Positions 27,449 to 45,215 of a stretch of DNA of 50,113 bases are shown piece after piece (within the stretch, counting starts at the first letter, position 1; every line of letters begins with the position of its first letter). This DNA comes from a virus: the IMG/VR virus record IMGVR_UViG_3300015164_000036, positions 1 to 50,113 of that record; one strand, 5' to 3'. The position numbers and the translations under genes were made by a program. Below the pieces are notes generated by a model that saw nothing but the letters and a program-made list of their open reading frames with translations, made no database searches and was not told where the DNA came from.

Positions 27449-27479
27449 GCCGGCGCTTGCAAGTAATTTGTAAGTTTCA

Positions 27480-27717
27480 TTGACCAGAGAAAGTGGTATC
27501 CAATCCGCTACGTTAGTAACAGGTCGTCAAGACACACCAGCGAATGCTTCCTTAGTTCGCTGCACTGTAAGACAGGAATCATGCTGATCCAAGGTAAAAG
27601 GTCGAAGGTTTTTGTCGCCGCCATCAAAAGTGGGAGCCGGTTACGGACATTCTCGAAGGGAGACGCATCGCAAGGTGCGCGTTACCAGGCCCGTAAGGGC
27701 ATTTGAAAGGAAAGATC
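27480..27717 (+). ncRNA. IscB omegaRNA scaffold
   Basis: The 270 bases between recT and iscB contain features typical of IscB omegaRNAs. There is a GGGAGCCGGTTACGG segment, a GAAGGGAGACGCATCGCAAG hairpin zone, and a 3' end CCAGGCCCGTAAGGGCATT that runs into the iscB start. The guide is expected at the 5' side, so it would be encoded at about 27460-27495, near the recT stop. The exact left boundary is uncertain. Confidence 0.75.
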
Positions 27718-29091
27718 ATGGCCGTATTTGTTTTGGATCGAAGTGGAAACCCGCTGATGCCGTGTTCGGAAAAACGGGCGCGTCTGCTGCTGGAGCGTGG
27801 TCGTGCCCGCGTTCACCGGATCGTGCCGTTTGTCATTCGTCTTGCAGATCGCCTGGCAAATGACAGCGTATTCCAGTCGTTGCGCTTGAAACTCGATCCT
27901 GGCAGCAAGACCACGGGCATTGCCATAGTACGGGAAAAAAATGACGCAATCGCCGTACTGAATCTGTTTGAACTGGCGCATCGCGGCCAGCAGATTACCA
28001 AGGCGCTTACGGCACGGCGTCAGTTGCGTCGTGCCAGACGCGGCAGGAATTTGCGTCATCGTGCGCCTCGGTTCTTAAATCGCGGCAACAAGGAAAATGG
28101 CTGGCTGCCGCCATCTCTGACGCACCGTGTAGATACCACGATGTCATGGGTTCTAAAACTATCTAGGTGGGCGCCAATTTCAGCACTATCGACCGAACTG
28201 GTCAAGTTCGACATGCAACTGATGCAGAACCCGGCGATTTCAGGCGTCGAGTATCAGCAAGGTGAACGCGCCGGATACGAGGTGCGCGAATATCTGCTGG
28301 AAAAGTGGCATCGCCAGTGCGCCTATTGCGACAAGACAAATGTTCCTCTGCAAGTCGAGCATATCGACTCACGCGCCAATGGCGGCAGCAACCGGGTATC
28401 GAATCTGACGATGGCCTGCCAGAAGTGCAATCAAAAAAAAGGGGCGCGATCTATTATTAATTTTCTGGTACACGATCCGGCCAGGCTTGCCCACATCACG
28501 GCAAAAGCCGTGGTGCCGCTGCGCGATGCCGCTGCCGTCAACGCTACGCGCTGGCGATTGCTGGAATGTCTGAAGCACACAGGCCTATCCGTTGACACCG
28601 GAACCGGAGGACAAACCAAGTTCAACCGCAGCCGCCTTGGCATTCCGAAAACGCACGCTCTTGATGCGGTCTGTGTGGGTAATGTTACGGCGGTGGATAA
28701 CTGGATACGGCCCACGCTGTACATTAAATGTACAGGCAGGGGCAGTTACCAGCGCACCCGTGTCACCGCACAAGGATTCCCGCGCGGGTATCTTATGCGT
28801 ACAAAACAGGCCCACGGCTTTCAAACTGGAGACCATGTGAAAGCCGTTGTACCAAAAGGTAAAAATACCGGAATCCATATTGGTCGTGTGGCGGTACGGG
28901 CATCCGGCAATTTCAATATCACGACCAACATCGGTATCGTTTCTGATGTGGCACATCGACATTGCGCGCTGATCCAACGCAATGATGGCTATGCATATTT
29001 TCAACAACCAACTGCAAAGGCTGCTACATCTTCGATGTCGTCTCATTTCCGTCCAGACATGAATGGCGGAGTATCCAGGAGCGAATCGTGA
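27718..29091 (+). CDS. iscB: IscB RNA-guided nuclease (Cas9 ancestor family), intact
   Basis: 457 residues from ATG 27718 with AAAGGA upstream. PLMP domain (residues 12-33), RuvC-I LKLDPGSKTTG (Asp60), arginine-rich bridge helix (about 99-122), RuvC-II ISALSTELV (Glu160), HNH domain with CAYC (201-204), VEHID (His215) and ACQKCN (234-238), then RuvC-III KTHALDAV (His313, Asp316). All catalytic residues are present. The last 25 residues (after QRNDGYAYF) look like read-through into flanking DNA, and its TGA overlaps the GTG of the exonuclease gene. No transposase is adjacent. Confidence 0.95.
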   Translation: MAVFVLDRSGNPLMPCSEKRARLLLERGRARVHRIVPFVIRLADRLANDSVFQSLRLKLDPGSKTTGIAIVREKNDAIAVLNLFELAHRGQQITKALTARRQLRRARRGRNLRHRAPRFLNRGNKENGWLPPSLTHRVDTTMSWVLKLSRWAPISALSTELVKFDMQLMQNPAISGVEYQQGERAGYEVREYLLEKWHRQCAYCDKTNVPLQVEHIDSRANGGSNRVSNLTMACQKCNQKKGARSIINFLVHDPARLAHITAKAVVPLRDAAAVNATRWRLLECLKHTGLSVDTGTGGQTKFNRSRLGIPKTHALDAVCVGNVTAVDNWIRPTLYIKCTGRGSYQRTRVTAQGFPRGYLMRTKQAHGFQTGDHVKAVVPKGKNTGIHIGRVAVRASGNFNITTNIGIVSDVAHRHCALIQRNDGYAYFQQPTAKAATSSMSSHFRPDMNGGVSRSES

Positions 29092-31689: not shown

Positions 31690-31704
31690 TATACTTGTGA
31701 ACAA
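31690..31704 (+). promoter_or_regulatory. parA promoter with palindromic start region
   Basis: The -10 TATACT is at 31690-31695; a possible -35 TTAGCA lies 18 bp upstream. The palindrome TTGTGAACAA (31695-31704) covers the transcription start and the first base of the ATG. The start codon lies where transcription should begin, so the mRNA is probably leaderless. Confidence 0.5.
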
Positions 31705-32390
31705 TGCAACTTTCCAACATTCGAACAATTGCCATTGTGAGCGAGAAGGGCGGAGCTGGCAAAACCACGCTCGCCGTCAATCTGGCGGTAATCGCCGAGA
31801 ATAGCGGGCGAGCTACGGTCGTGTTCGATCTCGATCCGCGCGCCAATGCAGCCATTTGGGGCGACGCGCGGGGCAGGTGTCCAGAGGTTGTGCCTGCGCA
31901 GGCTTCCAGGCTTTCTATGCTGCTACAGCAAGCGCAGAAAGCAAAGGCCGATCTGATTCTGCTCGACACGCCGAGCAACGCACTCCACATCGCACAGGTC
32001 GCCTGCGGACTCGCCGACCTGATCCTGATTCCGTGCCGCCCCTACCCGCCAGATTTGCTCTCGATCGTTCCGACAGTCAAGGTAGCGCTCGCGGCTGGCA
32101 TACCGACCTTCGTTCTGATTAACGCCGCTCCCGCACAGGGGATCGAAACAGCAGAGGCTACAGCCGCCATAGAGCGCGCTGGCGTAGCCGTTTGCCCGGT
32201 CATCCTGCATCAGCGCAAAGCCTTCGTGAGCCGGTTTCACGAGGGCATGAGCGCTACCGAAGTGGATTTTCGCTGCAAGGCCGCATTGGAGTTGGACGAG
32301 TTATGGGCTTGGGTGATAGACGCACTCGGTATTCTGCCAAAAGGCATTCCAGTGGTCACAAATCATAAAGATAACAACGCAACAACGTAG
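31704..32390 (+). CDS. parA: ParA-type plasmid partition ATPase
   Basis: 228 residues. The deviant Walker A SEKGGAGKTTLAVNLA (residues 13-28), Walker A' VVFDLDPRANA, and Walker B ADLILLDTPSN mark a small ParA (type Ib, without an N-terminal DNA-binding domain). It would form ATP-dependent patterns on the nucleoid to move plasmid copies. The next gene is an RHH protein, the usual type Ib partner; no ParB follows. Confidence 0.92.
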   Translation: MQLSNIRTIAIVSEKGGAGKTTLAVNLAVIAENSGRATVVFDLDPRANAAIWGDARGRCPEVVPAQASRLSMLLQQAQKAKADLILLDTPSNALHIAQVACGLADLILIPCRPYPPDLLSIVPTVKVALAAGIPTFVLINAAPAQGIETAEATAAIERAGVAVCPVILHQRKAFVSRFHEGMSATEVDFRCKAALELDELWAWVIDALGILPKGIPVVTNHKDNNATT

Positions 32391-32399
32391 GAATTAAAC

Positions 32400-32612
32400 A
32401 TGGCAACCAGAAAACCGCTTGAATTCGACATGAGCGCGCAGACTCCAACGCCTCGCAGGGTGCTGACCAACATAGACCGCCAGCATGTCGGCGCTCGCGT
32501 GCCGCGTGAGCAGTACCGACGGTTAAAGGCGCGCGCCGCGCTCGATGGGGTATCTGTGCAAACGCTGGTCGAGCAGGCTATCGATCAATTGCTAACTGGA
32601 GCCATCCCATGA
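32400..32612 (+). CDS. RHH centromere-binding partner of ParA
   Basis: 70 residues. The C-terminal 45 (GARVPREQYRRLKARAALDGVSVQTLVEQAIDQLL) form a ribbon-helix-helix domain; the N-terminal tail is flexible, as in ParG/Omega proteins. It would bind the partition site and repress the operon. The palindromes at 31389 and 31695 are candidate sites. Confidence 0.8.
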   Translation: MATRKPLEFDMSAQTPTPRRVLTNIDRQHVGARVPREQYRRLKARAALDGVSVQTLVEQAIDQLLTGAIP

Positions 32613-33115
32613 CGCTGAACGAATTTTTCGAATCTATCCTACCTGGCGACATAGACCAGGATTGCCGAAATACCCCAAATACAGCCGGTCTATATTTAAT
32701 AGTCAATACAGTGACTTGGAAGGCATACATCGGCCAGAGCCAAAGAATCGCAAGCCGGTTCCTGTCGCATCGCGGTGCACTGCGCGGGAATAAACATAGC
32801 AATCGTAGTTTGCAAGAGGATTGGAACAAGTACGGAGAAGCCATCTTTCGGTTTTGTGTCTTTGAAATCATGGACGCAAGTCTGCTGTTTGAAGCTGAAA
32901 TTCAGCTTATTTCGTCATCCGCAGGCTCGTGCTACAACCATTGCCCCGATATACCCAACAAACCCCGCCAAGTAAGGCTGTGTGGCAAGCCGACGATGAT
33001 CCGAATTCCTCCTGACCTGTTGACTCGAATTGACCAATGCGCCCGACGGTTTGGCCTTAGCCGCAGCGCCTTCCTTGTCCAGAGCGCGGCTGAGAAGATG
33101 GAGGGCCTACCATGA
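32609..33115 (+). CDS. GIY-YIG nuclease fused to a ribbon-helix-helix domain
   Basis: 168 residues, ATGA-coupled to the partition RHH gene. Residues 25-110 are GIY-YIG-like: AGLYLIVNTVTWKAYIGQSQ (GLY...YIG), an Arg after it, and DWNKYGEAIFRFCVFE with the typical W-K-G-F pattern. The catalytic Glu candidate is in FEAEIQLI. Residues 125-165 are RHH: MIRIPPDLLTRIDQCARRFGLSRSAFLVQ. Location inside the partition operon suggests a site-specific nuclease guided by an RHH reader, perhaps of the same site as the partition protein. Unusual architecture. Confidence 0.8.
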   Translation: MTLNEFFESILPGDIDQDCRNTPNTAGLYLIVNTVTWKAYIGQSQRIASRFLSHRGALRGNKHSNRSLQEDWNKYGEAIFRFCVFEIMDASLLFEAEIQLISSSAGSCYNHCPDIPNKPRQVRLCGKPTMIRIPPDLLTRIDQCARRFGLSRSAFLVQSAAEKMEGLP

Positions 33116-33303
33116 CGCCCACCAAGAGCAAAGACTGGCTCGAATGGCCCGGCGGCGAGTGTCCTGTGCCGCCGCTGACGCTCGTGAGCGTCCTATTCAG
33201 CACTGGCAAGGAAAGCTCTGGAAGCGCCAGCGCGCGAGCGTATAGATGGGATCGCATGAATTTAGGCGGCGATATTGTGGCGTACAGGGTTGAATCGAAA
33301 TGA
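33112..33303 (+). CDS. Small phage-type protein
   Basis: 63 residues. WPGGECPVPPLTLVSVLFSTGKES and a C-terminal WDRMNLGGDIVAYRV are a pattern common in short phage proteins. ATGA-coupled at both ends. Function unknown. Confidence 0.65.
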   Translation: MTPTKSKDWLEWPGGECPVPPLTLVSVLFSTGKESSGSASARAYRWDRMNLGGDIVAYRVESK

Positions 33304-33527
33304 CGAAATTGAGTCGAACCCAGCAGGATCTTCTCGACGCGATGAAGGCTGGCGTGGTAGTACATAGCATGCGTGGGAACTCCCGCAATTCAGCGTATTT
33401 CTTCAGCAACGACACCAGGAGGCCATGCACAGCAGCAGCATTTGCCTTGCGTGACAAGGGTCTCGCTCGTATCGATGGCGAGTGGAATAGTGCGCGCCTC
33501 GTGCTCATTGACAATCCGGCGACGTGA
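33300..33527 (+). CDS. Small winged-helix-like protein
   Basis: 75 residues. LSRTQQDLLDAMKAGVVVHS and AAAFALRDKGLARID resemble a winged helix with a turn rich in Ser and Asn. ATGA-coupled. Possibly a DNA-binding regulator. Confidence 0.55.
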   Translation: MTKLSRTQQDLLDAMKAGVVVHSMRGNSRNSAYFFSNDTRRPCTAAAFALRDKGLARIDGEWNSARLVLIDNPAT

Positions 33528-33537
33528 GGGGGCCGAA

Positions 33538-34083
33538 GTGAGCAAGAAGCAGATTAGTACGGCAGCGGGGCAGGCGGTCACAGATACTCGACAGCACCGG
33601 ATCGATCACGGACTTTGCCCGGAATGCGGGGAGGAAGCGGCCCCGTATTATCTCTGCGAACAGCATCGACGCAAAGCGTCCCTTGGCCGCATTCTGCGGT
33701 CGGCGGCAACGCGCGGCGTTCTCCGCATCAGCAAAAGAGGCGGCAGGAATTGGTATTCGGTGGATACAGGTTGCCGGCCAGCCTCCGACGTAAATTGGCC
33801 AGGAAAGACGATATTCGACATGAACGAGAACGACAAGCGCCTTCGTCCGCGTCTCGGGCGGCGTCCTGTCGATATAGACGAGACTTTGATCGGGATTTTT
33901 GTTGATTCTGGTCGCCCACTGCAATATGACGAAATCATATCTGCTTGGGGCCGACTCCGCTCCAAGAGGAAAACTGCGTCATTGGCTGGCGATATGACGG
34001 CGATCATAGAAGCGCAACGCAGACGTGCCGCGCGGAATGCAAAGCGCGCTCGTGATTCCAATGACAACCCGCCAACAAGATAA
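33538..34083 (+). CDS. Zinc-ribbon/helix-turn-helix protein upstream of repA
   Basis: 181 residues from GTG 33538 (G-rich ribosome site upstream). An N-terminal ribbon CPECGEEAAPYYLCEQH is followed by a helix-turn-helix-like stretch (ASLGRILRSAATRGVLRISKRGG) and a C-terminal domain RPVDIDETLIGIFVDSGRPLQYDEIISAWGRLRS. It overlaps the repA start. A replication-control role is possible by position only. Confidence 0.55.
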   Translation: MSKKQISTAAGQAVTDTRQHRIDHGLCPECGEEAAPYYLCEQHRRKASLGRILRSAATRGVLRISKRGGRNWYSVDTGCRPASDVNWPGKTIFDMNENDKRLRPRLGRRPVDIDETLIGIFVDSGRPLQYDEIISAWGRLRSKRKTASLAGDMTAIIEAQRRRAARNAKRARDSNDNPPTR

Positions 34084-34954
34084 GATTATCGACGCTGGCG
34101 TTTCAATCGCGCTAGACCGGCCGACCGACCAAGACAAGGCGTTTCTCGCTCGCCAATTGGTGCAGACCACGCTCCCCCACGCAGACCCAGGTAACGTGCC
34201 CGTCTGGAGCCGGAGCAACGGCAACCTTACCCTGACTATCCAACAGGGCTACGAGGACGACAGCAGCCCAATTGGGCACCCGTACGGCATTATCCCGCGC
34301 CTCCTACTCTACTGGCTCACCACCGAAGCCATCCGCACCAAAACGCCGCGCCTGGTGCTCGGAGATACGCTGGCAGCCTTCATGGACGGGCTTGGACTGG
34401 ATGATCGCGGCAAGGGGCCACGCAGCGACCGAGTACGGCTGGAGCAACAGATGCGCCGCCTATTCGCGGCTCGGATCAGTTTCAAAAGCCGGCTGGAGCA
34501 GGATGGCCATGTAGCCCAAGTCACGGCGTACATGCAGGTCGCCAAGCAAACCGTCTACTGGTGGAGTCCGGCGCCGGCACATCAATCAGCGCTTTGGCAG
34601 AGCTACGTCGAACTCGATACGGACTTTTTCGCGGCGATCACGGCTAACCCGGTGCCAGTCGATCTCAGGGCGCTCCGGGCTATCAAGCGGAGTCCGCTGG
34701 CGCTCGATTTGTACTCGTTGCTGACTTATCAGGCATTCCGGGCAGGGAAGGGCGGTCGGGCGAGATTTATGAGCTGGCGGCAGTTGCAGGCGGCGCTGGG
34801 GACGAGTTATGACCGAATCGACAATCTGCGGGCAGCGATCAAGCCTGCGCTGAAGAAGATTGTGGCGGTCTATCCTGGACTTGCTATCGGAGAACGCGAC
34901 GGCGGGATTGAGGTTTTGCCGGAGAGCTTGCCAGCTATTTCTTCGAAGTTCTGA
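34061..34954 (+). CDS. repA: Plasmid replication initiator, RepA_C family
   Basis: 297 residues from ATG 34061 (MTTRQQDKIIDAG matches the usual start; in-frame ATGs at 34025 and 34037 also exist). Typical segments: YGIIPRLLLYWLTTEAIRTKTPRLVLGDTLAAFMDGLGL, RLEQQMRRLFAARIS, NPVPVDLRALRAIKRSPLALDLYSLLTYQ and a C-terminal winged helix (MSWRQLQAALGTSYDRIDNLRAAI). It should bind the iterons just downstream and recruit DnaA and DnaB. Confidence 0.92.
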   Translation: MTTRQQDKIIDAGVSIALDRPTDQDKAFLARQLVQTTLPHADPGNVPVWSRSNGNLTLTIQQGYEDDSSPIGHPYGIIPRLLLYWLTTEAIRTKTPRLVLGDTLAAFMDGLGLDDRGKGPRSDRVRLEQQMRRLFAARISFKSRLEQDGHVAQVTAYMQVAKQTVYWWSPAPAHQSALWQSYVELDTDFFAAITANPVPVDLRALRAIKRSPLALDLYSLLTYQAFRAGKGGRARFMSWRQLQAALGTSYDRIDNLRAAIKPALKKIVAVYPGLAIGERDGGIEVLPESLPAISSKF

Positions 34955-34997
34955 AAACACAATATTCGAACATCCGCTTAACAGGCTTTCGAATATG

Positions 34998-35148
34998 TGG
35001 TGAAACGGTAGTTGGCGCCGAAACAAAGTTACCCACAATTTCTGTGGACAACCATACTTGTTACTGGTGAATAGGTAGTCCAGCCCTGTGGTGAATCGGT
35101 AGGGTATGCGTGGTGAAAGGGTAGGAGATGGTGTGGTGATTTGGTAGT
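34998..35148 (+). repeat. Five iterons, consensus TGGTGAAWNGGTAGK
   Basis: Copies at 34998-35012, 35065-35079, 35089-35103, 35111-35125 and 35134-35148. The last four are spaced 22-24 bp, about two helical turns, so RepA would bind one face of the helix. The first is 67 bp apart and may be the autoregulatory copy. Confidence 0.9.
35028..35051. promoter_or_regulatory. DnaA boxes (two)
   Basis: TTACCCACA at 35028-35036, and TTGTCCACA on the minus strand at 35043-35051, each one mismatch from TTATCCACA. A third, TTTTCCACA (minus strand, 35208-35216), lies at the far end of the origin. Confidence 0.7.
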
Positions 35149-35216
35149 CCATCATTACTATAGGTGTTGTAAAAGTAGTTAAAGCCTGTAGTAACAGCGC
35201 CGCTTTCTGTGGAAAA

Positions 35217-35420
35217 TTGACATCCCCCCAGCACTAAAGGACTGGGATTCCTACAGCTAGACGCGAATGCCCTCGCGCACGGATGTTGATGGCTGCATTT
35301 ATGTCTCGGTCGTGTACCGCTCCACACTCGCAGCATTCCCAATCCCGCTTATTCAGTCCTGCCAACCATTTCGGGCTGCTGGCGGGAATGACTCCGCAGC
35401 TTGCACAGGTCTGGGTTGTG
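35217..35420 (-). ncRNA. omegaRNA of the second tnpB (3' part)
   Basis: By analogy with IS605 elements, the RNA overlaps the tnpB 3' end and finishes at the hairpin near 35223-35243. The guide would follow on the minus strand at about 35200-35216, which is origin DNA including a DnaA box. The 5' limit is approximate. Confidence 0.6.
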
Positions 35421-36289
35421 TATCTTTCGTTGACTTCCTCAAACCATACAGCCGCGTTATCGCATTTGTACTGAAGCATGGTTCTAAAGGCACTCCAACC
35501 GGCGTCCAAGACGGATTTCGCCATCTTGGTTTTTGCAAGCTTGGAGGCGCTCACGTTGCCAACGAAGATCGCACCGTTCTGGCTGACCAGTCTGGTGCTG
35601 AGTTTGTGCAGGAAGTCTTTCCTGCGGTTCCCAATTTTTGCGTGAATGGTCTTCACGCGCCCCTTCTTGTTTGCGCGCTGCGCAATCGCCAGCGATTGTT
35701 CCGCGCCACGGTAGATGCGCTGCGCCTCGATCTTTTCACCCGTTGAGAAAGTAGCGAAATCCTTCAGTCCAAGGTCGATGCCGATAGAGGATGTGCCATC
35801 AGACTTCTGTTCCTCGACTTCGACGCAGAGATTGGCGTACCAACGGCCCCGAGCATCCTGACTGAAAGTTCCGGATCGCAGTTTGTAGTCGGCGAGGCCG
35901 TAGCTATCCCAAAGGCTGAAGAACTGCCCGACGTAGCGAAGTTGCCCATTCTTGTAGGTGACGGTGCCAGCCTTGAATGGAATCCAGCCAAGCGACTTAC
36001 GCGAACCACCAGAGACGCGCCAGCGCAACTTGGATTTTTTGAATTGCTTGCGGCGGGTGACGTATTCATCTGTGATGCCCTGCACGGTTTGACTATGCAC
36101 CTTCAAGCCCTCCTTGCACGCGCCAGTCGTGTACTTCTGGAGATCATAGGCGCTGAAGAATTGCCAAGTGCGCTGCGTGTGCGTGTGCGATAGTTCGTTC
36201 ACGAAATTCCACACCATATTGCACTCGCATGCCATTTCGTCGAGCGCCTTGGCATGTTTGTCTTTGATTCGGACGCGAAGGGTTTTCAA
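35234..36289 (-). CDS. tnpB: TnpB family protein with altered RuvC-II
   Basis: 351 residues from TTG 36289, overlapping the RHH gene stop (TTGA). RuvC-I SIGIDLGLKDFAT (Asp172) and RuvC-III HDRDINAAIN (Asp329) are intact, and the zinc ribbon is C295/C298 with C319/C322. The RuvC-II position reads IFVGNVSAS, with Gly244 where Glu is usual. Glutamates Glu284, Glu285 and Glu288 (FEEVNER) lie 40-44 residues later. Some TnpB and Fanzor lineages have a relocated catalytic Glu about 45 residues on, so the protein may still cut; otherwise it would be an RNA-guided binder. Confidence 0.9.
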   Translation of the reverse strand: MKTLRVRIKDKHAKALDEMACECNMVWNFVNELSHTHTQRTWQFFSAYDLQKYTTGACKEGLKVHSQTVQGITDEYVTRRKQFKKSKLRWRVSGGSRKSLGWIPFKAGTVTYKNGQLRYVGQFFSLWDSYGLADYKLRSGTFSQDARGRWYANLCVEVEEQKSDGTSSIGIDLGLKDFATFSTGEKIEAQRIYRGAEQSLAIAQRANKKGRVKTIHAKIGNRRKDFLHKLSTRLVSQNGAIFVGNVSASKLAKTKMAKSVLDAGWSAFRTMLQYKCDNAAVWFEEVNERYTTQTCASCGVIPASSPKWLAGLNKRDWECCECGAVHDRDINAAINIRARGHSRLAVGIPVL

Positions 36290-36417
36290 TTTTGCTTCTT
36301 CAAGAACTCAGCAATGGCGTGGCGAATCAGTTCTGCCACCGACAAATCAGTTTTTTGCGAAAGAGATTTGAGGGCTTCAACCACCGGCTCAGGCAGAAAT
36401 ACGTGTGTGCGTTTCAT
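36286..36417 (-). CDS. 43-residue ribbon-helix-helix protein coupled to tnpB
   Basis: Starts at ATG 36417. The strand KRTHVFLPEPVVEALKSLS and helices DLSVAELIRHAIAEFLKK form a minimal RHH domain. Its TGA overlaps the tnpB TTG (TTGA), so translation of tnpB depends on it. It probably represses the element's own promoter at the left end, near the GGTTTTTAACC hairpin. Confidence 0.75.
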   Translation of the reverse strand: MKRTHVFLPEPVVEALKSLSQKTDLSVAELIRHAIAEFLKKQN

Positions 36418-36476
36418 ACACACACTATATCAGGTTTTTAACCGAAAGGCAACCGCAACGACAAGTCGTGACGCGA

Positions 36477-36983
36477 TCAACCAAGCCCCGCAAACACTAT
36501 CGCCCGCGCACCGTCCACATCCCGATGGTCGGCGAAGGCGAATTGCACCGCATGATCGCTGGCTCTCCGTGTTTTGTCGACTTCATCGCCGAATTTCGAT
36601 GTGACGTAGGCGCGCATCGCGGATATTAGCGCCGTCTGGCCAGCGATCCTGATGCTGTCCCATCCGTTATCCGTGCGAATCATCCCGATCCAGGGCGATC
36701 CTGGCGACCACCCGCCAGGCGCGTAGTTGTAGTCCAGTTCAATGCGCTCCCTCTCGATAATTGGTCCTCCGATAGCCCAATCTCTGCTGTAGCGCTTGAT
36801 ATTCGCGCTCCACTCGCCGTCCGGACACATCGTTACAGAACCCAGCGTCTCTTGACCAGGAATTGCGAGCGGATAGAGTATGTATCCGACGGTCGTCTGC
36901 GGCCAAGGTTTCCCGAACCGATAGCCCTCGCACATGGCCACCGCAGCATCTAGTTCCGCGCCTTCCAATTCGCAAACCTTCAT
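36477..36983 (-). CDS. DUF2591-like phage protein
   Basis: 168 residues from ATG 36983 with G-rich ribosome site; ORF extension to 37058 is rejected. MKVCELEGAELDAAVAMCEG, then YSRDWAIGGPIIERERIELDYN, then ISAMRAYVTSKFGDEV match the DUF2591 pattern. The tail after KFGDEV is longer than usual. Function unknown; typical of accessory phage genes. Confidence 0.75.
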   Translation of the reverse strand: MKVCELEGAELDAAVAMCEGYRFGKPWPQTTVGYILYPLAIPGQETLGSVTMCPDGEWSANIKRYSRDWAIGGPIIERERIELDYNYAPGGWSPGSPWIGMIRTDNGWDSIRIAGQTALISAMRAYVTSKFGDEVDKTRRASDHAVQFAFADHRDVDGARAIVFAGLG

Positions 36984-36984
36984 C

Positions 36985-37086
36985 TCATCCCCCAAAAGCC
37001 CAAGTCGCCACCCACAACACCGCCGCGCCCGCACAGCCGAGGACGAACGTGATGGCAACGGCGAGCTTAAATTGCAGGGGCTGCAT
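36985..37086 (-). CDS. Tiny membrane protein
   Basis: 33 residues, TGATG overlap with the upstream stop. LAVAITFVLGCAGAAVLWVATWAF is a single hydrophobic helix. Function unknown. Confidence 0.55.
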   Translation of the reverse strand: MQPLQFKLAVAITFVLGCAGAAVLWVATWAFGG

Positions 37087-37337
37087 CATCCTTCGATCCT
37101 CTTGAGTAGTTCTCGGGCGCGTGCGCGAAAGCGGCTGTCTACATCGTCCAGATCAACGTAGATGCGCAACGTCTCCACCAGCGCATCCGAGTAATTGACC
37201 GCGCGGACAAGCAGTGCCGCGTGATCGCGATCAGCCCAAACCACGTCATCGCCGGCTGCATCGATTATCAAGACCTCCTGCTCGTCGGCGTACATTGGCG
37301 AAATCGACCATGGGAGGTTTAATGGCTCGTCTGTCAT
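37086..37337 (-). CDS. Small phage-type protein
   Basis: 83 residues from ATG 37337; an upstream in-frame start at 37370 is possible. LPWSISPMYADEQEVLIIDAAGDDVVWADRDHAALLVRAVNYSDALVETL follows the layout of short phage proteins with the (H/D)AxLIVRAVN pattern. Function unknown. Confidence 0.6.
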   Translation of the reverse strand: MTDEPLNLPWSISPMYADEQEVLIIDAAGDDVVWADRDHAALLVRAVNYSDALVETLRIYVDLDDVDSRFRARARELLKRIEG

Positions 37338-37403
37338 AAACGTGTCTAAAATTGCCGGTTTTCTATACACGTCGCTGAAACGTATTTAGTTTTTGAACGT
37401 TTC

Positions 37404-37664
37404 CTACGCCTTCCGCCAGTCCCTGTATTCCAGCGTCCAATGCGCATTTTCCCCACGGTCGGTCCATTCCAGGTTGTTGGAGAAACGCACATATTCTCGC
37501 CACACCGCAATTTCCTCTCCGAGCCATAGCAAGGTTAGGCGATACTCGTTCCACTTGTAGTTGATGTGCGTCTCGCGGCCCTCAATGGTATCTCCAACCT
37601 GAATCCCCATTTCGCGGCATTGCGCGGCAGTCGAGAGACCTGCGCTCGGCTTTGGTAGCTTCAT
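37404..37664 (-). CDS. Conserved small phage protein
   Basis: 86 residues from ATG 37664. LSTAAQCREMGIQVGDTIEGRE and the ending WTLEYRDWRKA form a conserved pattern in phage early genes. The start overlaps the restored reading frame of the upstream gene (ATGA). Function unknown. Confidence 0.65.
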   Translation of the reverse strand: MKLPKPSAGLSTAAQCREMGIQVGDTIEGRETHINYKWNEYRLTLLWLGEEIAVWREYVRFSNNLEWTDRGENAHWTLEYRDWRKA

Positions 37665-37872
37665 GACCGCACCAGCCACCCATGCGGCCAATAAGAGATT
37701 TTATTCGACTTGCGCAATTTCTCAACCGACGGTCAATGACGATGTATGAAGTGTCCATTCCTTCGAGTGCATCGCACAGAGCTTTGAATGTTCTGCTACC
37801 AGCCTGTATATGCGCCAGGATCGCGGCGTCGAGGTCGGAGTCGTCTTTCCTTGTTCGTGCCATGCTGCTCAC
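37660..37872 (-). pseudogene. Winged-helix protein with a frameshift
   Basis: The N-terminal part (RKDDSDLDAAILAHIQAGSRTFKALCDALEG, then YIVIDRRL) is a winged-helix domain. In the current frame the end becomes an unrelated tail running to 37582. One base away the frame reads EKLRKSNKISYWPHGWLVRS and then a stop that overlaps the next start (ATGA at 37661-37664), as expected for the family. A one-base deletion near 37716-37727, or a sequencing error, explains this. Confidence 0.65.
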
Positions 37873-38129
37873 AGCTCCGGCATAGTAAGAATGTGCTCTT
37901 CGCCCATTTCGCGCAATTTGGCCTGATCGATTTCCGGTTCATTGACCATTTGCATCAAGGATTGCGCCTTCAGCATCCAGCGTGATCGCGTGACTATATG
38001 GTTCTTCAGTGCATCCAGCGCCTCTCCCGTGCTGATCTGGCGTTCATCGACCACTTGCCCAGTCGCAATATCGCCTACGAACTTGGCGAGCGCCATAGGA
38101 TCGTGCGGACGCTTTATTTGCGGTTTCAT
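37869..38129 (-). CDS. Conserved small phage protein
   Basis: 86 residues. MKPQIKRPHDPMALAKFVGDIATGQ is a start I recognise from phage proteins; helical remainder. ATGA-coupled upstream. Function unknown. Confidence 0.6.
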   Translation of the reverse strand: MKPQIKRPHDPMALAKFVGDIATGQVVDERQISTGEALDALKNHIVTRSRWMLKAQSLMQMVNEPEIDQAKLREMGEEHILTMPEL

Positions 38130-38452
38130 ACTGTCTCCTGTTTTGTCAGTTTTGGCTGTTTCCGCTTGGCTGCCTTAATTTCTTGCCCCAGCCGTTTAAT
38201 AGTGCGACCAATTTCCGCCAACTTTGCATCAACCTCCTCTTGTTGTGCTATCCGCTCTTTAGCTTCTGGTACGCAGTCGAGGCAGTAATAGAAAGCGTAG
38301 GAACCCCAGTACCCTCCGATGTAGTAATCACCGATGTTTATCGTGCGGTGGCCTCTCGCATTTCTTCCCCTATGGCCGCTGCACCAGTGCTCTTTGCGGG
38401 CGCGGTGAATAAGCTCGCCAGCAAAGTCGCCTGATTCGACTACTAGTGCCAT
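38126..38452 (-). CDS. Zinc-binding hypothetical protein
   Basis: 108 residues. An early His/Cys cluster (HRARKEHWCSGH, YYCLDC) suggests zinc binding, followed by a coiled coil (EVDAKLAEIGRTIKRLGQEIKAAKRK). ATGA-coupled. Function unknown. Confidence 0.6.
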   Translation of the reverse strand: MALVVESGDFAGELIHRARKEHWCSGHRGRNARGHRTINIGDYYIGGYWGSYAFYYCLDCVPEAKERIAQQEEVDAKLAEIGRTIKRLGQEIKAAKRKQPKLTKQETV

Positions 38453-38770
38453 TTACGCTGCCTCCTGTTCAGGCGCGATAGCCACTTCCTCGAATTTCGC
38501 CGGCTCCGCGATAATCGGTGTGACTTCCTCGTATACCAAAATATCATGCACTGCAATAATCATTTTTTGCCACTTTGCAACCGGCACGCGGTCTAACTCG
38601 TATTCGCTCAGGAGCGCAAGAATCGCTTTCTGGTTCCTTTCCAGATATTTCCGATCATTCTCCTTTTTCTGCTCGCGCAATGTTTTCAGCTTCGACTCGG
38701 CGGCGGCGATTTCGGCGTCTATGCTGGTGTCGAGTTTGGTGGTGCGTGTGCGCTTTTGTCCTTGTTTCAT
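38453..38770 (-). CDS. Coiled-coil hypothetical protein
   Basis: 105 residues. DTSIDAEIAAAESKLKTLREQKKENDRKYLERNQKAIL is a long charged coiled coil. No recognised domain. Same operon. Confidence 0.55.
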   Translation of the reverse strand: MKQGQKRTRTTKLDTSIDAEIAAAESKLKTLREQKKENDRKYLERNQKAILALLSEYELDRVPVAKWQKMIIAVHDILVYEEVTPIIAEPAKFEEVAIAPEQEAA

Positions 38771-38772
38771 TT

Positions 38773-39183
38773 CTACTCCGGTTGATTGTTTTCTGCAATT
38801 AGCGCCTGGATAGCCTGTTCTGCTTCTTCGGCAGTGTAGCTTATTCCCGCATTCTCCCTAATATTCTTGTACGCGGCTTTCCACTTCCGCCGAAATATCT
38901 TGCGTTTTGCGAGCCTGGCGACAATCTTTCCTTCGTCGCTGAATTGAATTGCCGCGATGATCTCGTTGTGGATGCAATTGCGCACAGATAGGAGAAAGGT
39001 ACTCGACGCCGCTGTGACTGCATCAGGGTACATAACCTCAATGTACGCGGCTACTTCCTTTCCGATGTCCATCGCCATTTCACGGATTAACGCCTTCGCG
39101 GTCGAATTGCGATCCGTGGATTCAGGCGGCACCGCGCCAATGGTAGGTACTGCGTCTTTGGGTGCTAGTGCGGTGCTGGTCAT
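38773..39183 (-). CDS. Hypothetical protein
   Basis: 136 residues, helical, with a basic region (RLAKRKIFRRKWKAAYKNIRENAG). ATGA-coupled with its upstream neighbour. No recognised family. Confidence 0.55.
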   Translation of the reverse strand: MTSTALAPKDAVPTIGAVPPESTDRNSTAKALIREMAMDIGKEVAAYIEVMYPDAVTAASSTFLLSVRNCIHNEIIAAIQFSDEGKIVARLAKRKIFRRKWKAAYKNIRENAGISYTAEEAEQAIQALIAENNQPE

Positions 39184-39626
39184 TTCTGCTCCTGTGTTTC
39201 AGACGCGCAAAGCGCCAATTTCTCTTTAGCAACGGCGAGCTTCATTTCCAGTTCTACTACAAATTCCTGCAATCGTTCGAAGCTCCAACCGCTATAGTCA
39301 CGCATTGACACGCCTACTGCCGCGATTGCCTTTGCTGCTTCTTGCAGATTCTTCTCCTTCTCGACATTTCGCTGGAGTTCTTCGACGTTAAGATGAATTG
39401 TGTCTCGGTTATATTTACTGCCCAACGACCCTATTTCGTCGCCGTTCTTATCAAAGCGCCTGATGGTGCTGTTTTCAGTATGACGCACAGCGATCTGACC
39501 AGAAGGCGTTATCCGATAAATTTTGTAGAGAAAGTTATATTGCACCGTCCCCCATCCTGAGTAACTACTTCTGATGGCTACCGGCTGCCCAATCTTAATT
39601 TCCGCCACTGCGGTCTCTAATGTCAT
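39180..39626 (-). CDS. Hypothetical beta-barrel/coiled-coil protein
   Basis: 148 residues. The first half is beta-rich (KIGQPVAIRSSYSGWGTVQYN, QIAVRHT); the second is a helix with heptads. ATGA-coupled. Function unknown. Confidence 0.55.
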   Translation of the reverse strand: MTLETAVAEIKIGQPVAIRSSYSGWGTVQYNFLYKIYRITPSGQIAVRHTENSTIRRFDKNGDEIGSLGSKYNRDTIHLNVEELQRNVEKEKNLQEAAKAIAAVGVSMRDYSGWSFERLQEFVVELEMKLAVAKEKLALCASETQEQK

Positions 39627-39823
39627 TTCCGCTCCTCTGCGTCATTCTGCCTAATTGGCCGATCCGGCAATCCGTCAAGAAAGTGCCGCAGCCACGGTGC
39701 CCCGCCGTGTGCCAGCGCCTTGTCCCGCTGCGCTTGAGTTAGTCGGACATGCCATGCTAAAAGGCGCTCGCCAGGATATAGTTGTTTGCGGCCTTGCGAG
39801 CGGTCTGAGTGTGGACGTGTCAT
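39623..39823 (-). CDS. Small hypothetical protein
   Basis: 66 residues, basic. GERLLAWHVRLTQAQRDKALAHGGAPWLRHFLDG resembles a short repressor-like helix pair. ATGA-coupled on both sides. Confidence 0.55.
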   Translation of the reverse strand: MTRPHSDRSQGRKQLYPGERLLAWHVRLTQAQRDKALAHGGAPWLRHFLDGLPDRPIRQNDAEERK

Positions 39824-40182
39824 AGATTAAGAATCTCCGATGCTTTAGCTATCGCTTCCAAGCTAATGCCTCTCGGCGCTGCGTAGCTATTTCTTACATT
39901 TACTTGAAATGCATCCCACGCAAGGAGAAGCGCGAGTTCTGCTTCTCTCGCTTCTTTGCTCACGTAACACTTTCCGGGAGATGAGTATTCGCCACCATCT
40001 ACGACCAGAGTTTCAGAATCAGCGCGGAGGTGGTTGTGGAGATACAACCACTTCCTGCCCATCTTGATAATCTCTACTGCGTATGGTCGTCTCCACTGAT
40101 CGGTACGCCCGTCAGATGTGAGAAGTGCTCGAGCTGGCACGTACCAAAGTTTTTGCCCGATCTGGTAGTTCTCAATTGCCAC
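39820..40182 (-). CDS. Small barrel-type phage protein
   Basis: 120 residues. YQIGQKLWYVPARA, then RPYAVEIIKMGRKWLYL fits a small beta-barrel seen in phage accessory genes. Function unknown. Confidence 0.55.
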   Translation of the reverse strand: MAIENYQIGQKLWYVPARALLTSDGRTDQWRRPYAVEIIKMGRKWLYLHNHLRADSETLVVDGGEYSSPGKCYVSKEAREAELALLLAWDAFQVNVRNSYAAPRGISLEAIAKASEILNL

Positions 40183-40387
40183 GTTCTTCTCCTATCAGCC
40201 GATAGAATATCGAGGACTGCGGCGACAACGGCCACCGGCCACAGCCCTCATCCTGGAATTGTCGTTCATCTCCTTTCCGCGCCACAAGACCGTCTAGCGT
40301 CGCAAGTCGTTCATTGACATCATTGGCACTTTGCCACTCGTGCGTGAGTTTCGCTTTCGCGCGTTCATGGGCTTTGGTGAGTTTCAT
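40172..40387 (-). CDS. Small hypothetical protein
   Basis: 71 residues from ATG 40387, with a GGAAGG ribosome site; upstream in-frame extension rejected. Helical and basic. TAATG-coupled to the gene before. Confidence 0.5.
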   Translation of the reverse strand: MKLTKAHERAKAKLTHEWQSANDVNERLATLDGLVARKGDERQFQDEGCGRWPLSPQSSIFYRLIGEERGN

Positions 40388-40635
40388 TACGGTTCCTTCC
40401 TTTGCCGAATATTGGCATCGCTCAGATTTCGCTTGTCGAAGGAATTTATGCACCACCCGGCTTTGTCGCATCTTTGGTAAAACCGCCGTCCGCCAGAATT
40501 GACGACAGAGATCGGCCCGACTGTTTCCGTGCGCGATACCGTCCGCGCCTGTTTCATCATTCCGGCTGAAATGCCGATTGCAGTTCCAATGAGTACAGAG
40601 ACTAGAACTGAGAGAGTGAACGTTGTGGGTTTCAT
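40387..40635 (-). CDS. Small membrane-anchored or exported protein
   Basis: 82 residues from ATG 40635. The N-terminal hydrophobic helix FTLSVLVSVLIGTAIGISAG is followed by a polar domain with two cysteines (RCDKAGWC). It may be an inner-membrane anchored periplasmic protein. Confidence 0.55.
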   Translation of the reverse strand: MKPTTFTLSVLVSVLIGTAIGISAGMMKQARTVSRTETVGPISVVNSGGRRFYQRCDKAGWCINSFDKRNLSDANIRQRKEP

Positions 40636-40675
40636 GCTGATTCCGGTTGATTGCTGACAGTTGATAGTGCCCACT

Positions 40676-40914
40676 AAATCAACTTGGATGTCAAGTGCTG
40701 GATGAACCTGTCGCTTGCTTGTGCAGCACAAGCGATTCGAGCGCTTTGACCCGCCGTTCCAAGTTGTGTGCACGCCACGAACTGACTAAGTTTCCTAACG
40801 CCAGCAATGCGAGTCCAAGATACATCCAGCCTATTGACATTTAGATTCTCTCCCAAAGTGAAGTTAACCAACAAACGTATTGTCGCACGAAATCAACTTG
40901 AAGTCAAATGCTGG
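40676..40914 (-). promoter_or_regulatory. Duplicated promoter of the small-gene operon
   Basis: AAATCAACTTGRWGTCAARTGCTGG occurs at 40676-40701 and 40890-40914. On the minus strand each gives a -35 (TTGACA or TTGACT). The second has GACAAT 17 bp downstream as a good -10; the first has a weaker -10. The first copy lies between the two small membrane genes, so the second promoter would drive the whole operon and the first its remainder. Confidence 0.55.
40691..40840 (-). CDS. Small membrane/coiled-coil protein
   Basis: 49 residues from ATG 40840 with GGGAGAG upstream. A hydrophobic N-terminus (WMYLGLALLALGNLVSSW) and a short coiled coil (LERRVKALESLVLHKQ). Function unknown. Confidence 0.55.
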   Translation of the reverse strand: MSIGWMYLGLALLALGNLVSSWRAHNLERRVKALESLVLHKQATGSSST

Positions 40915-41460
40915 CTACAGCGGGCAGAATGGGTGAACCTTGCGCTTCTCTTCCAGGTAGGCTTGATGCGCGGCTTCCGGTGTGTCGAAGGAGCCTATCG
41001 CATACTGTTTTCCATTGATTCCAATGTAAGCACACCATGTCCGGCTTTTTTTAATCCACGCCACTCCAAGCAATCCAGCCGCGCTCCGGCGTTGCGCCTT
41101 TGTCTGATTCTGCGCGTTTTCGCTAACCGTAGATTCTCGAAGATTCGCGATCCTGTTATTTGCCTTGTCGCCATCGATATGATCTATTTGGTTTTCAGGC
41201 CATTTTCCTGTCGTCCAGAACCATGCGACTCTATGAGCTGAATACCGTATTCCATCTAACTTAAGGTAGATATACCCCGCCTTATTAGGCGATCCTGCGA
41301 TACGCCCTCCTTGTACGCCACACCGCGTAATAGTCCACCTAAATAAGCCCGTAGTTGGCTCAAATATCACAATCTCTAGCAAGCGCTTGATCTCAATCAA
41401 TTGGTTCGCTGTACGTGTCGCAGGATGCCTGTGCTTGGTGGATGCTTCCATATTTGTCAA
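40915..41460 (-). CDS. HNH-AP2 homing endonuclease
   Basis: 181 residues. The HNH domain includes HRVAWFWTTGKWPENQIDHIDGDKANNRIANLR; a C-terminal AP2 domain reads GVAWIKKSRTWCAYIGINGKQYAIGSFDTPEAAHQAY. This HNH plus AP2 architecture is the classical free-standing homing nuclease of phages. It borders the oriT region and probably spreads by gene conversion. Confidence 0.9.
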   Translation of the reverse strand: MTNMEASTKHRHPATRTANQLIEIKRLLEIVIFEPTTGLFRWTITRCGVQGGRIAGSPNKAGYIYLKLDGIRYSAHRVAWFWTTGKWPENQIDHIDGDKANNRIANLRESTVSENAQNQTKAQRRSAAGLLGVAWIKKSRTWCAYIGINGKQYAIGSFDTPEAAHQAYLEEKRKVHPFCPL

Positions 41461-41808
41461 AGTTCTCTGTGTTCAATTGCTACGCTCGCCCGGCTTCGCC
41501 GACCGAGAAAATGTGAGACTCCAAAGCCTTAAAAGCAGTGCTGTGCGATGCTGAAAGCAGCGCCTAAAAGTCCTTAATGCCAAAGCCAAAATAGGGTTAC
41601 GCGATACGCACGTAGGACGTGCAAACCCCACAACCGTAGCCTAACTCGTTGATTCTGCTCCTCTTTATTACTGCTTGACAAGATGCCAGCCAAAACACTG
41701 CCAAAAGCAGTAGAACAAGGCATATACACTGGCGTGGTGCGGTGCTGTACTTGGCATATAATTCCTGTAGTATACTGCTACTACGGTAATTAAACGAGGA
41801 CTCTCCAC
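41461..41808. other. Non-coding transfer-origin region
   Basis: About 350 bases without a gene between the divergent HNH-AP2 gene and the mobilization operon. It holds the oriT candidate and two -10-like boxes (TATAAT at 41758-41763, TATACT at 41772-41777) for the downstream operon. No other structure is clear to me. Confidence 0.6.
41586..41622 (-). other. oriT: Predicted oriT, R388-like
   Basis: On the minus strand a hairpin GCACGT-CCT-ACGTGC (41608-41622) is followed by GTATCGCGTAACCC. R388 oriT has the same layout: an inverted repeat of the GCACC/GGTGC type, then GTATTGTCT, the nic, then ATAGCCC. By alignment, nicking would fall at T-A between 41599 and 41598. The strand that enters first would then lead away from the trw-like genes, as expected. 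Confidence 0.6.
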
Positions 41809-42099
41809 ATGAAACGCGGCCAATACAAGATCATCGCCGTCGATGGCACAGAGACCATCATCAATAAACGGCCTACTACCGCTGCTATCCGCCTCGCCAT
41901 CGGTGCAGACGGTCTCGATACCGTAACTCTCAGCCACTCTCCGCCGATCCTCGTAATGTTCGTGGACGACACCGGAGCCATCAACGGCAAAGCTGCTAAT
42001 GCGACTGCGACGGCGCTCTACTTGGAACTATGCAGCCCCGGCACGACGCACCAAATTTGCGGCGACGTGGCAATTGTCAACGACGCGGATTTTTCATAA
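41809..42099 (+). CDS. DUF3846-like small protein
   Basis: 96 residues from ATG 41809. The ending LYLELCSPGTTHQICGDVAIVNDADF resembles the conserved end of small plasmid and phage proteins such as DUF3846. It is first in the mobilization operon. Function unknown. Confidence 0.55.
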   Translation: MKRGQYKIIAVDGTETIINKRPTTAAIRLAIGADGLDTVTLSHSPPILVMFVDDTGAINGKAANATATALYLELCSPGTTHQICGDVAIVNDADFS

Positions 42100-42435
42100 A
42101 TGGCGTTAAGCGATCCCATTCCAGTCCGGCTTTCACACGAACGCCGCGCTGCATACGAAGCCGAAGCCGCAGAGCGCGAAATGCCGCTTGGTCAGTTTTT
42201 GCGCGAACGCCTCGACGCCGCTGATCGGATTCAGGATGAACTGGCTGCTATCCGCCATGCGCTTGTAGCATTCATGGAACGCGAACCAAGCACGATAAGC
42301 GCGGCTCCGTCTGCGGACGCCGGGATGCTTTTAGAGATTCTGCTGCTTACGCGGCAACGCGCGAAACCGGAGGAACTGAGAATGTGGCAGGCTGAGGTTG
42401 CACGGAATGGTTTGAAGGTCTGGGAGGGAAAATGA
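42100..42435 (+). CDS. TrwA-like ribbon-helix-helix mobilization accessory
   Basis: 111 residues from ATG 42100. DPIPVRLSHERRAAYEAEAAEREMPLGQFLRERL is a typical RHH N-terminus. Position between the oriT and the coupling protein and relaxase genes matches trwA in R388, which binds oriT and represses the operon. The C-terminal half probably oligomerises. Confidence 0.75.
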   Translation: MALSDPIPVRLSHERRAAYEAEAAEREMPLGQFLRERLDAADRIQDELAAIRHALVAFMEREPSTISAAPSADAGMLLEILLLTRQRAKPEELRMWQAEVARNGLKVWEGK

Positions 42436-42788
42436 CCGATAAGCCAATACGTGTTCAGTTAAGCAGAAAGAAAGGATGGCGTTTGCCGCCAAATACAGTC
42501 AAGGTTGATCGAACCACGAGTTTTGGTAATCCTTACCGCATCGGTGAGCCAGTAGATGCGAAAGTCGCGGAGCGATGGGGATTTAAACTTCGATTCCATG
42601 ATCGTCAAGCCATCGACACGGCGCACGCAGTAGAACTATTCTCGCGCTTATTCGTCTTTACGCGGGATGATGCTCAGTCGTATGTAGTACGCAACATGCT
42701 TCGCGGCAAAAATTTGGCCTGCTGGTGCGCGCTCGATGCCCCGTGTCATGCCGATGTTCTTCTGGAAATAGCGAACGATGAATCCTGA
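42432..42788 (+). CDS. DUF4326 protein
   Basis: 118 residues, ATGA-coupled. TVKVDRTTSFGNPYRIGE and LRGKNLACWCALDAPCHADVLLEIAN match the DUF4326 family (a short fold with CWC...CHAD). Its function is unknown. Its presence in a mobilization operon is unusual. Confidence 0.85.
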   Translation: MTDKPIRVQLSRKKGWRLPPNTVKVDRTTSFGNPYRIGEPVDAKVAERWGFKLRFHDRQAIDTAHAVELFSRLFVFTRDDAQSYVVRNMLRGKNLACWCALDAPCHADVLLEIANDES

Positions 42789-43041
42789 CGACCGTCTCCG
42801 CCTAAGCGCCGCGCTAGAAAGTGAACTAGAACTTTTGCCTAAAAAGTTACTGCTTGAGCTTTCCGCCAAAGCGCTAGGCCCATTCTCGATAAAAATGCGC
42901 GCAGAACGCAATAAGTTTCGTGGGCTATACGAGCAAACAAAACAAAATTTAGATAAGGCTAAATCCGATCTTGAGAACGCGCGAAACGGATGTCGCAAAT
43001 TAAAGGAGCAGTTGAATGCGACCAAGGACGCGCAACCTTGA
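42778..43041 (+). CDS. Small coiled-coil protein before the coupling protein
   Basis: 87 residues. It begins NPDDRLRLSAAL, almost the same as the start of the next gene (NPDDRLRLSAGL). The second half is a charged coiled coil. It could be an accessory subunit made from a duplicated N-terminal segment. Confidence 0.6.
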   Translation: MNPDDRLRLSAALESELELLPKKLLLELSAKALGPFSIKMRAERNKFRGLYEQTKQNLDKAKSDLENARNGCRKLKEQLNATKDAQP

Positions 43042-44621: not shown

Positions 44622-44633
44622 AAAGATCACGCC

Positions 44634-45215
44634 ATGCTTCAAGAAAAGCGCTGCTCTCGATGCAGAGAGATAAAAGATATTAGTTTGTTTCACCGGTCTT
44701 CTAGTAACAACGACGGGCGCAACTCACATTGCGCAGCATGCAGAAATGCATACTACACAACAGGTAATGGGCGAGCTATTCGTGATGCTTACAGCATTAC
44801 AGAAGCGGCTCGCGTAGCTCACAGATTAGCCAATGTGAAACATAACAAATCGGAGAATGCGAGGCTCGCTAAGAGCGCATATGCCAAGTCTGATATTGGT
44901 CGAGCCGCCAACAAGGCGTACAAAGTGGTGTACCGAAAAACAGAAGCCTACATTGCATCCAGGACTCGCAATGTGGAAGCAAGCCGGACTCGTTACCCAA
45001 TTCGTGTCGAAGCACGACAAGCAGTCTCTAGCGCCATTCGCTCTGGCATTCTTGTTAGATGGCCGATATGCGCAGTACCAGAATGCGACCGTAAGCCAGA
45101 GGCCCATCATCCTGACTATTCAAGACCTCTTGATGTTGTGTGGTTATGCTTTACCCATCATCGACAAGCACATGCGCTTGTCCGCGTGCCGTCATTTGTG
45201 GAGCGTAATGGATGA
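44634..45215 (+). CDS. Zinc-ribbon/HNH-like protein in the mobilization operon
   Basis: 193 residues. N-terminal CSRCREIKDISLF...CAACRN ribbon, basic middle, and a C-terminal cluster CAVPECDRKPEAHHPDYSRPLDVVWLCFTHHRQAH that looks like an HNH/zinc fold. Related ribbons occur at 30250 and 49158. Position between coupling protein and relaxase suggests a DNA-processing accessory. Confidence 0.6.
   Translation: MLQEKRCSRCREIKDISLFHRSSSNNDGRNSHCAACRNAYYTTGNGRAIRDAYSITEAARVAHRLANVKHNKSENARLAKSAYAKSDIGRAANKAYKVVYRKTEAYIASRTRNVEASRTRYPIRVEARQAVSSAIRSGILVRWPICAVPECDRKPEAHHPDYSRPLDVVWLCFTHHRQAHALVRVPSFVERNG

What the first reader, a model, noticed from the sequence alone, without database searches (positions are those of the whole stretch)
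35217..36443. TnpB with RuvC-II Glu replaced by Gly and a possible relocated Glu
RuvC-I (Asp172) and RuvC-III (Asp329) are intact, but the usual RuvC-II Glu is Gly244 (IFVGNVS). Three glutamates lie 40-44 residues later just before the zinc ribbon. Some TnpB and Fanzor groups are reported to use such a relocated acid; otherwise the protein would be a programmable binder without cutting.
Basis: partly seen in the sequence, partly recalled or inferred. Interest (0 to 1): 0.78.

Follow-up and report, generated by a model that had tools for sequence, protein, structure and literature searches.

The report
TnpB nuclease with known relocated glutamate
This is a TnpB RNA-guided DNA-cutting protein whose third catalytic acid has moved to a new place in the chain, an arrangement already published for Fanzors and some bacterial TnpBs and shared by all of its relatives sampled here, so it is most likely an ordinary active enzyme and not a dead DNA binder.

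Summary
The minus-strand ORF 35234-36289 (TTG start, 351 aa) is a TnpB with Asp172, Gly244 at the RuvC-II position, Asp329, and glutamates 284, 285 and 288. The change is not a private mutation. Gly244 is invariant in 55 sequences aligned here (window plus relatives), and of the three late glutamates only Glu288 is nearly invariant. Glu288 lies exactly six residues before the first zinc-ribbon CxxC. That is the published "Ealt" position of Fanzors and of one TnpB group (PMC10711439). Across 84 scorable TnpBs, canonical Glu goes with a non-acid at 288, and Gly goes with an acid at 288, without exception. In the AlphaFold model Glu288 follows directly on the strand next to the vacated one. The omegaRNA is present and supported by strong covariation. 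The relocated-Glu reading is therefore supported, and a nuclease-dead reading is unlikely. This is a new member of a known variant. Side results: the element has lost its left end and carries no TnpA. tnpB overlaps the stop codon of a 43-aa ribbon-helix-helix gene. The guide comes from DNA beside the iterons of a RepA plasmid origin. Independent relocation in this clade is favoured, not settled. No cleavage assay was possible.

The parts
35234..36289 (-). tnpB, 351 aa, TTG start overlapping the stop codon of the upstream RHH gene (TTGA)
   Evidence: Pfam OrfB_IS605 and Cas12f1-like_TNB above cut-off; NCBIfam guided_TnpB 234.7 bits, cut-off 100
35774..35776 (-). codon of Asp172, RuvC-I (GIDLG)
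   Evidence: invariant in 55 of 55
35558..35560 (-). codon of Gly244, the vacated canonical RuvC-II Glu position
   Evidence: invariant Gly in 55 of 55; aligned with the RuvC-II Glu of ISDra2 TnpB
35426..35428 (-). codon of Glu288, proposed catalytic Glu (Ealt), six residues before Cys295
   Evidence: published position in PMC10711439
35303..35305 (-). codon of Asp329, RuvC-III (HDRDIN)
   Evidence: 54 of 54 readable rows
35217..35282 (-). 3' part of the omegaRNA scaffold, overlapping the end of tnpB: helices at 35261-35278, 35251-35260 and 35226-35247; ends at TCAA (35217-35220)
   Evidence: covariation: 14 of 19 pairs with changes on both sides, 97.8% of cells paired, score 0.522 against 0.148 in shuffles
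35197..35216 (-). inferred guide segment TTTTCCACAGAAAGCGGCGC, first 20 nt outside the right end
   Evidence: sequence after ...GTCAA is variable between copies while GTCAA is conserved; inferred from known TnpB biology
36286..36417 (-). 43-aa ribbon-helix-helix (CopG-like) protein gene, overlapping the tnpB start
   Evidence: Pfam RHH_3 and RHH_1 above cut-off; same gene pair in 8 related loci
36418..36467 (-). remnant of the element's 5' leader; the terminal left-end hairpin seen in relatives is absent, so the left end is truncated
   Evidence: comparison with L004/L005 and others; no left-end match at this place; homology to the TnpB-less relative L066 resumes at 36469
34025..34954 (+). RepA_C plasmid replication initiator next to the insertion (context, not part of the element)
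35065..35153 (+). iterons of the plasmid origin beside the insertion (context)
   Evidence: four copies of TGGTGAAxxGGTAGxxxx at 22-24 nt spacing, plus one at 34998

Best explanation
An RNA-guided TnpB nuclease of the IS200/IS605 type that completes its RuvC active site with Asp172, Glu288 and Asp329 instead of the canonical Glu at position 244. Shown here: the residues, their conservation and mutual exclusion, the position of Glu288 at the end of the neighbouring sheet strand in a model, and the omegaRNA with its right end. Inferred: Glu288 binds the catalytic metal; the omegaRNA made from the 3' end of tnpB carries the 20-nt flank beside the plasmid iterons as guide; the enzyme cuts copies of that site that lack the element, which favours replicons carrying it. 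The copy has lost its left end and has no TnpA, so it is probably no longer mobile by itself but could still cut.
For: Gly244 invariant and Glu288 nearly so, clade-wide. All 23 canonical-Glu TnpBs have a non-acid at 288 and all 61 scorable Gly TnpBs have an acid there; six further distant ones follow the Gly-plus-acid rule. The E-x6-CxxC position is the published Ealt, reported there for Fanzors, and in cryo-EM the Fanzor SpuFz1 holds two Mg2+ at the scissile phosphate with D383, E541 and D606 (PMC11423790). AlphaFold (pLDDT 78.5): the canonical strand 238-245 and the next strand 282-287 end at G244 and E288. VIA-align Z 21.9 to ISDra2 TnpB and 20.6 to mimivirus Fanzor2. OmegaRNA covariation. 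TnpB as a plasmid gene drive is published (PMC11870625).
Against: No coordinates were available, so no metal-site distance was measured; pTM is 0.52 and the lid 248-262 is below pLDDT 50. Relatives share descent, so the mutual exclusion is not 84 independent events. I found no published cleavage test of a member of this proteobacterial clade. The window copy's left end is truncated and no exact copy of the guide was found in IMG/VR, so its present target is unknown. The RNA fold of this single copy is only modestly better than shuffles (z -1.37).
Confidence: 0.82

Rival explanations
1. Nuclease-dead RNA-guided DNA binder (TldR-like): loss of the canonical Glu abolished cutting and the protein now represses a target.
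For: The canonical Glu is gone; the element lacks TnpA and its left end; tnpB overlaps a gene for a DNA-binding RHH protein.
Against: Asp172 and Asp329 are invariant and Glu288 nearly so across the clade, which a dead enzyme need not keep. Many relatives still have both element ends, and six of 61 family loci carry a TnpA gene nearby, so the Gly predates any domestication.
Confidence: 0.1
2. Active nuclease, but the third acid is Glu285 or Glu284 and not Glu288.
For: Both lie on the same strand, and E285 is conserved in 47 of 55.
Against: E285 is Val or Leu in several members that keep E288, such as L063 and L022, and E284 is often Leu. Only E288 has the exact published spacing to CxxC.
Confidence: 0.05
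3. A decaying, nonfunctional remnant of an insertion sequence.
For: Truncated left end, no TnpA, TTG start, and closest relatives at about 62% identity.
Against: Full-length open frame, complete triad, four zinc cysteines, and the right-end hairpin keeps pairing with a changed stem (CCCAG/CTGGG).
Confidence: 0.12

Closest known systems
TnpB group with D-hydrophobic-G RuvC-I and Ealt (PMC10711439, NAR 2023)
   Same: DLG motif, no canonical RuvC-II Glu, Glu six residues before the first CxxC.
   Different: Spacings here (113 residues from the DLG to Glu288; 20 between the two zinc CxxC pairs) fall outside that paper's search expression. Only 3 of the 62 Gly members sampled match it, against 55 with relaxed spacing.
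Pro-Fanzors and Fanzors (eukaryotic and giant-virus relatives)
   Same: Same relocated Glu; fold matches mimivirus Fanzor2 9b0l at VIA Z 20.6, rmsd 5.6, 328 aligned.
   Different: They have DPG in RuvC-I; this has DLG. Kin elements are IS200/IS605-like with TCAA right ends and some Y1 TnpA, not IS607.
ISDra2 TnpB (canonical)
   Same: Domain order, fold (Z 21.9), zinc ribbon, right-end omegaRNA overlapping tnpB.
   Different: Canonical Glu aligned with Gly244 here; Pro aligned with Glu288.
TldR nuclease-dead TnpBs
   Same: Carried by a phage- or plasmid-like replicon, no TnpA.
   Different: TldRs arose by inactivation of the nuclease domain (PMC13418256); here a full set of acids is kept.

Membership tests
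TnpB (RNA-guided OrfB nuclease) | OrfB_IS605 and TNB/zinc-ribbon domains above curated cut-offs | tested here: met
TnpB (RNA-guided OrfB nuclease) | RuvC acid triad D-E-D | tested here: met
   D172, E288 (alternative position), D329
TnpB (RNA-guided OrfB nuclease) | structured omegaRNA at the 3' end of tnpB | tested here: met
TnpB (RNA-guided OrfB nuclease) | RNA-guided DNA cleavage | not testable with these tools
   needs an assay
Ealt TnpB with D-hydrophobic-G | hydrophobic residue between the RuvC-I Asp and Gly | tested here: met
   DLG, L in 55 of 55
Ealt TnpB with D-hydrophobic-G | Glu six residues before the first zinc CxxC and none at the canonical place | tested here: met
   E288-RYTTQT-C295; Gly244
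Ealt TnpB with D-hydrophobic-G | Glu288 at the catalytic metal site | tested here: inconclusive
   topology agrees, no distances available
Pro-Fanzor / Fanzor | DPG in RuvC-I together with Ealt | tested here: not met
   DLG, not DPG (definition)
TldR (nuclease-dead TnpB) | loss of the RuvC catalytic acids | tested here: not met
   all three positions filled by acids if Ealt is counted
Complete IS200/IS605 element | right-end hairpin with TCAA cleavage-type end | tested here: met
Complete IS200/IS605 element | left-end hairpin | tested here: not met
   present in relatives, absent in the window copy
Complete IS200/IS605 element | Y1 transposase TnpA | tested here: not met
   no hit anywhere in the window; six of 61 family loci have one

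The most novel reading that the evidence does not exclude
The beta/gammaproteobacterial clade moved its RuvC-II Glu to the Ealt position independently of the lineage that led to Fanzors. This copy, having lost its left end, persists beside a plasmid origin as an RHH-controlled nuclease that removes rival copies of that origin region.
Probability: 0.15. Interest if true: 0.55.

Novelty: new member of a known kind. Interest (0 to 1): 0.3.

Why it matters
It shows that a missing RuvC-II Glu in a TnpB should not be read as a dead nuclease without checking six residues before the zinc ribbon; motif filters that demand the canonical Glu discard this whole proteobacterial clade. The clade is compact (about 350 aa) and I found no published test of it. 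If its relocation is independent of the Fanzor lineage, it is a natural repeat of the same active-site rewiring.

Tried and rejected
Nuclease-dead reading: set back by clade-wide conservation of Glu288. Fanzor or pro-Fanzor membership: DLG, not DPG. Single or multiple origin of Ealt: in the full-length tree of 54 the Ealt rows need 2 changes, AU p 0.033; RuvC-only tree with six more Ealt proteins, p 0.004; with six rows (five flagged as long branches, plus L116) and the motif columns left out, p 0.105, so unresolved. Empty site: an exact guide search of IMG/VR found nothing; L066, a 91% RepA relative, lacks the element but differs in the guide stretch. NinX neighbour: no relatives. Rfam: no TnpB RNA hit at gathering score, only HEARO. 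A residue-by-residue alignment with mimivirus Fanzor2 was never among the printed ones. The PNAS 2023 TnpB census, which from memory reports rearranged catalytic sites in several branches, is not held. The IS200/IS607 NCBIfam 'exception' models are far below cut-off. Literature searches for an RHH gene tied to TnpB gave nothing on point.

Full report
Observation. The minus-strand ORF 35234-36289 reads as a 351-aa TnpB from a TTG codon. Pfam finds OrfB_IS605 and Cas12f1-like_TNB above their cut-offs; NCBIfam calls it guided_TnpB. HMMER sets Gly244 opposite the RuvC-II Glu of ISDra2 TnpB and Glu288 opposite a Pro.

Is it a private mutation? No. Scans of IMG/VR and of GTDB species genomes gave 64 related loci, mostly beta- and gammaproteobacteria and viral contigs. 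In 55 aligned sequences, window included, Gly244 and Asp172 never vary, Asp329 is present in all 54 readable rows, and Glu288 is Glu in 52 and Asp in 2 of 54 (one of the two Asp rows, L049, comes from a broken copy). Glu285 is kept in 47 and Glu284 in 35. Thus, of the three late glutamates, 288 is the constrained one.

Mutual exclusion. I added TnpBs from plasmids, phages and genomes of the class of one Burkholderiales relative and aligned 87. The 23 with canonical Glu have R, P, K, Q, A or S at the 288 column. The 61 with Gly and a readable 288 column have E (59) or D (2). Six further distant TnpBs from plasmids also pair Gly with Glu. Common descent makes these far fewer independent events, but the pattern is what an exchange of one catalytic acid for another would leave.

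Structure. AlphaFold on a 35-sequence alignment gave mean pLDDT 78.5 and pTM 0.52. Strand 167-172 ends at Asp172, strand 238-245 holds Gly244 at its end, strand 282-287 is followed at once by Glu288, and helix 328-340 starts around Asp329. In the RNase H fold these strands are neighbours and end on the same side (established knowledge), so Glu288 sits one strand over from the vacated position. I had no coordinates, so no distance is claimed. The nearest solved folds are ISDra2 TnpB (VIA Z 21.9, rmsd 4.8, 318 aligned) and, tied with Cas12f, mimivirus Fanzor2 (Z 20.6, rmsd 5.6, 328 aligned).

What is known. PMC10711439 defines Ecan (about 50 residues before the zinc finger) and Ealt (six residues before it), reports Ealt for Fanzors, and splits Ealt proteins into a D-hydrophobic-G group and a DPG group. 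The window protein fits the first. In cryo-EM the Fanzor SpuFz1 coordinates two Mg2+ at the scissile phosphate with D383, E541 and D606 (PMC11423790), so this type of site can cut. The first paper's search expression allows 120-160 residues between DxG and Glu and 12-18 between the CxxC pairs; here they are 113 and 20, and only 3 of 62 Gly members match it, against 55 with wider limits.

Element anatomy. The right end is conserved as GGAATCCCC...GGGGAGGATGTCAA, after which copies differ. The TCAA end agrees with right cleavage sites common in IS605-type elements (PMC9956272). The 3' end of tnpB and the right end form three helices with strong covariation: 97.8% of cells paired, 102 double-change cells against 29 in shuffles, score 0.522 against 0.148, and at most 0.133 when slid. 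Helix 1 lies inside the coding sequence, so selection on the RNA is visible through the codons. Intact relatives have a left-end hairpin preceded by TTTATC, TTTACC or TCATC-like motifs; the window copy lacks it and has no TnpA anywhere. Six of 61 family loci have a Y1 TnpA gene nearby. The copy is thus left-truncated and probably not mobile on its own.

Context. The record is listed as a virus, but carries RepA_C, iterons, a ParA-like protein, TrwB and a TrwC relaxase as well as phage-type recombination and replication genes. It looks plasmid- or phage-plasmid-like; I did not survey every ORF for capsid genes. The right end lies 64 bases from the last iteron, so the inferred guide TTTTCCACAGAAAGCGGCGC is origin-flanking DNA. 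L066, from a 100.6-kb record with a 91% identical RepA, has no TnpB there but an HTH-HNH protein and other ORFs. TnpB acting as a gene drive between plasmids is published (PMC11870625); that this copy does so is inference.

RHH gene. A 43-aa ribbon-helix-helix protein (36286-36417; read) ends in the TGA of TTGA, in which tnpB's TTG start lies. Eight related loci have the same pair (25 to 29 of 43 residues identical in those compared). Translational coupling and autoregulation are likely but untested. Those of the eight that are in the tree belong to another branch of the clade than the window TnpB, which hints at loss elsewhere or exchange.

Origin of the relocation. In trees that leave out the two trait columns the proteobacterial Ealt clade lies with canonical IS605-type TnpBs, apart from the other Ealt proteins. 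A single Ealt clade is rejected at AU p 0.033 and 0.004 but not (p 0.105) once six rows, mostly long branches, and the motif neighbours are left out. Independent relocation is favoured, not shown.

Verdict. Confirmed observation, supported interpretation, known arrangement: a new member of a known variant, most likely an active nuclease using Glu288. Interest is modest, because the cleavage question for this clade is open but the arrangement is published.

Noticed in passing
window 23000-24103 (-): A second, divergent TnpB/Cas12-like protein (367 aa; GMDSN at RuvC-I, canonical IENL Glu, zinc ribbon, HADRNA). Relatives at 93%, 63% and 58% lie in other viral contigs; DNA similarity to the 93% relative begins 15 nt before the ATG and ends about 5 nt after the stop, so it looks like a very compact mobile unit.
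   Followed up: partly
window 27428-29091 (+): An IscB with its HEARO omegaRNA directly upstream (97 bits, gathering 83), so one replicon carries IscB, an Ealt TnpB and a third TnpB-like protein.
   Followed up: no
window 36286-36417 (-): 43-aa RHH gene overlapping the tnpB start by TTGA; the same pair in L004, L005, L010, L012, L036, L037, L040 and L058. I found no published account of it.
   Followed up: partly
window 31704-48117: RepA_C, iterons, ParA-like ATPase, TrwB coupling protein and TrwC relaxase in a record classed as viral: plasmid or phage-plasmid features.
   Followed up: partly
L066 6097-7321: At the place of the window's TnpB, a related replicon carries an HTH-HNH protein and another ORF, so the origin-side locus may be a hotspot for nuclease genes.
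   Followed up: partly
L118, L086, L124-L129: Deep TnpBs from several phyla and a large phage also have Gly at the canonical place and Glu before the zinc ribbon; in the trees they stand apart from the proteobacterial Ealt clade.
   Followed up: partly
L104 (Salmonella phage LPSTLL, NC_070846.1 26646-27737): A member of this Ealt clade between the portal/head-morphogenesis and lysis genes; in the GenBank copy MN737551.1 the same gene region is labelled 'putative head morphogenesis protein'.
   Followed up: no
L015, L055, L057, L049: Some family members are split over two frames or broken, as expected of insertion-sequence copies in decay.
   Followed up: no
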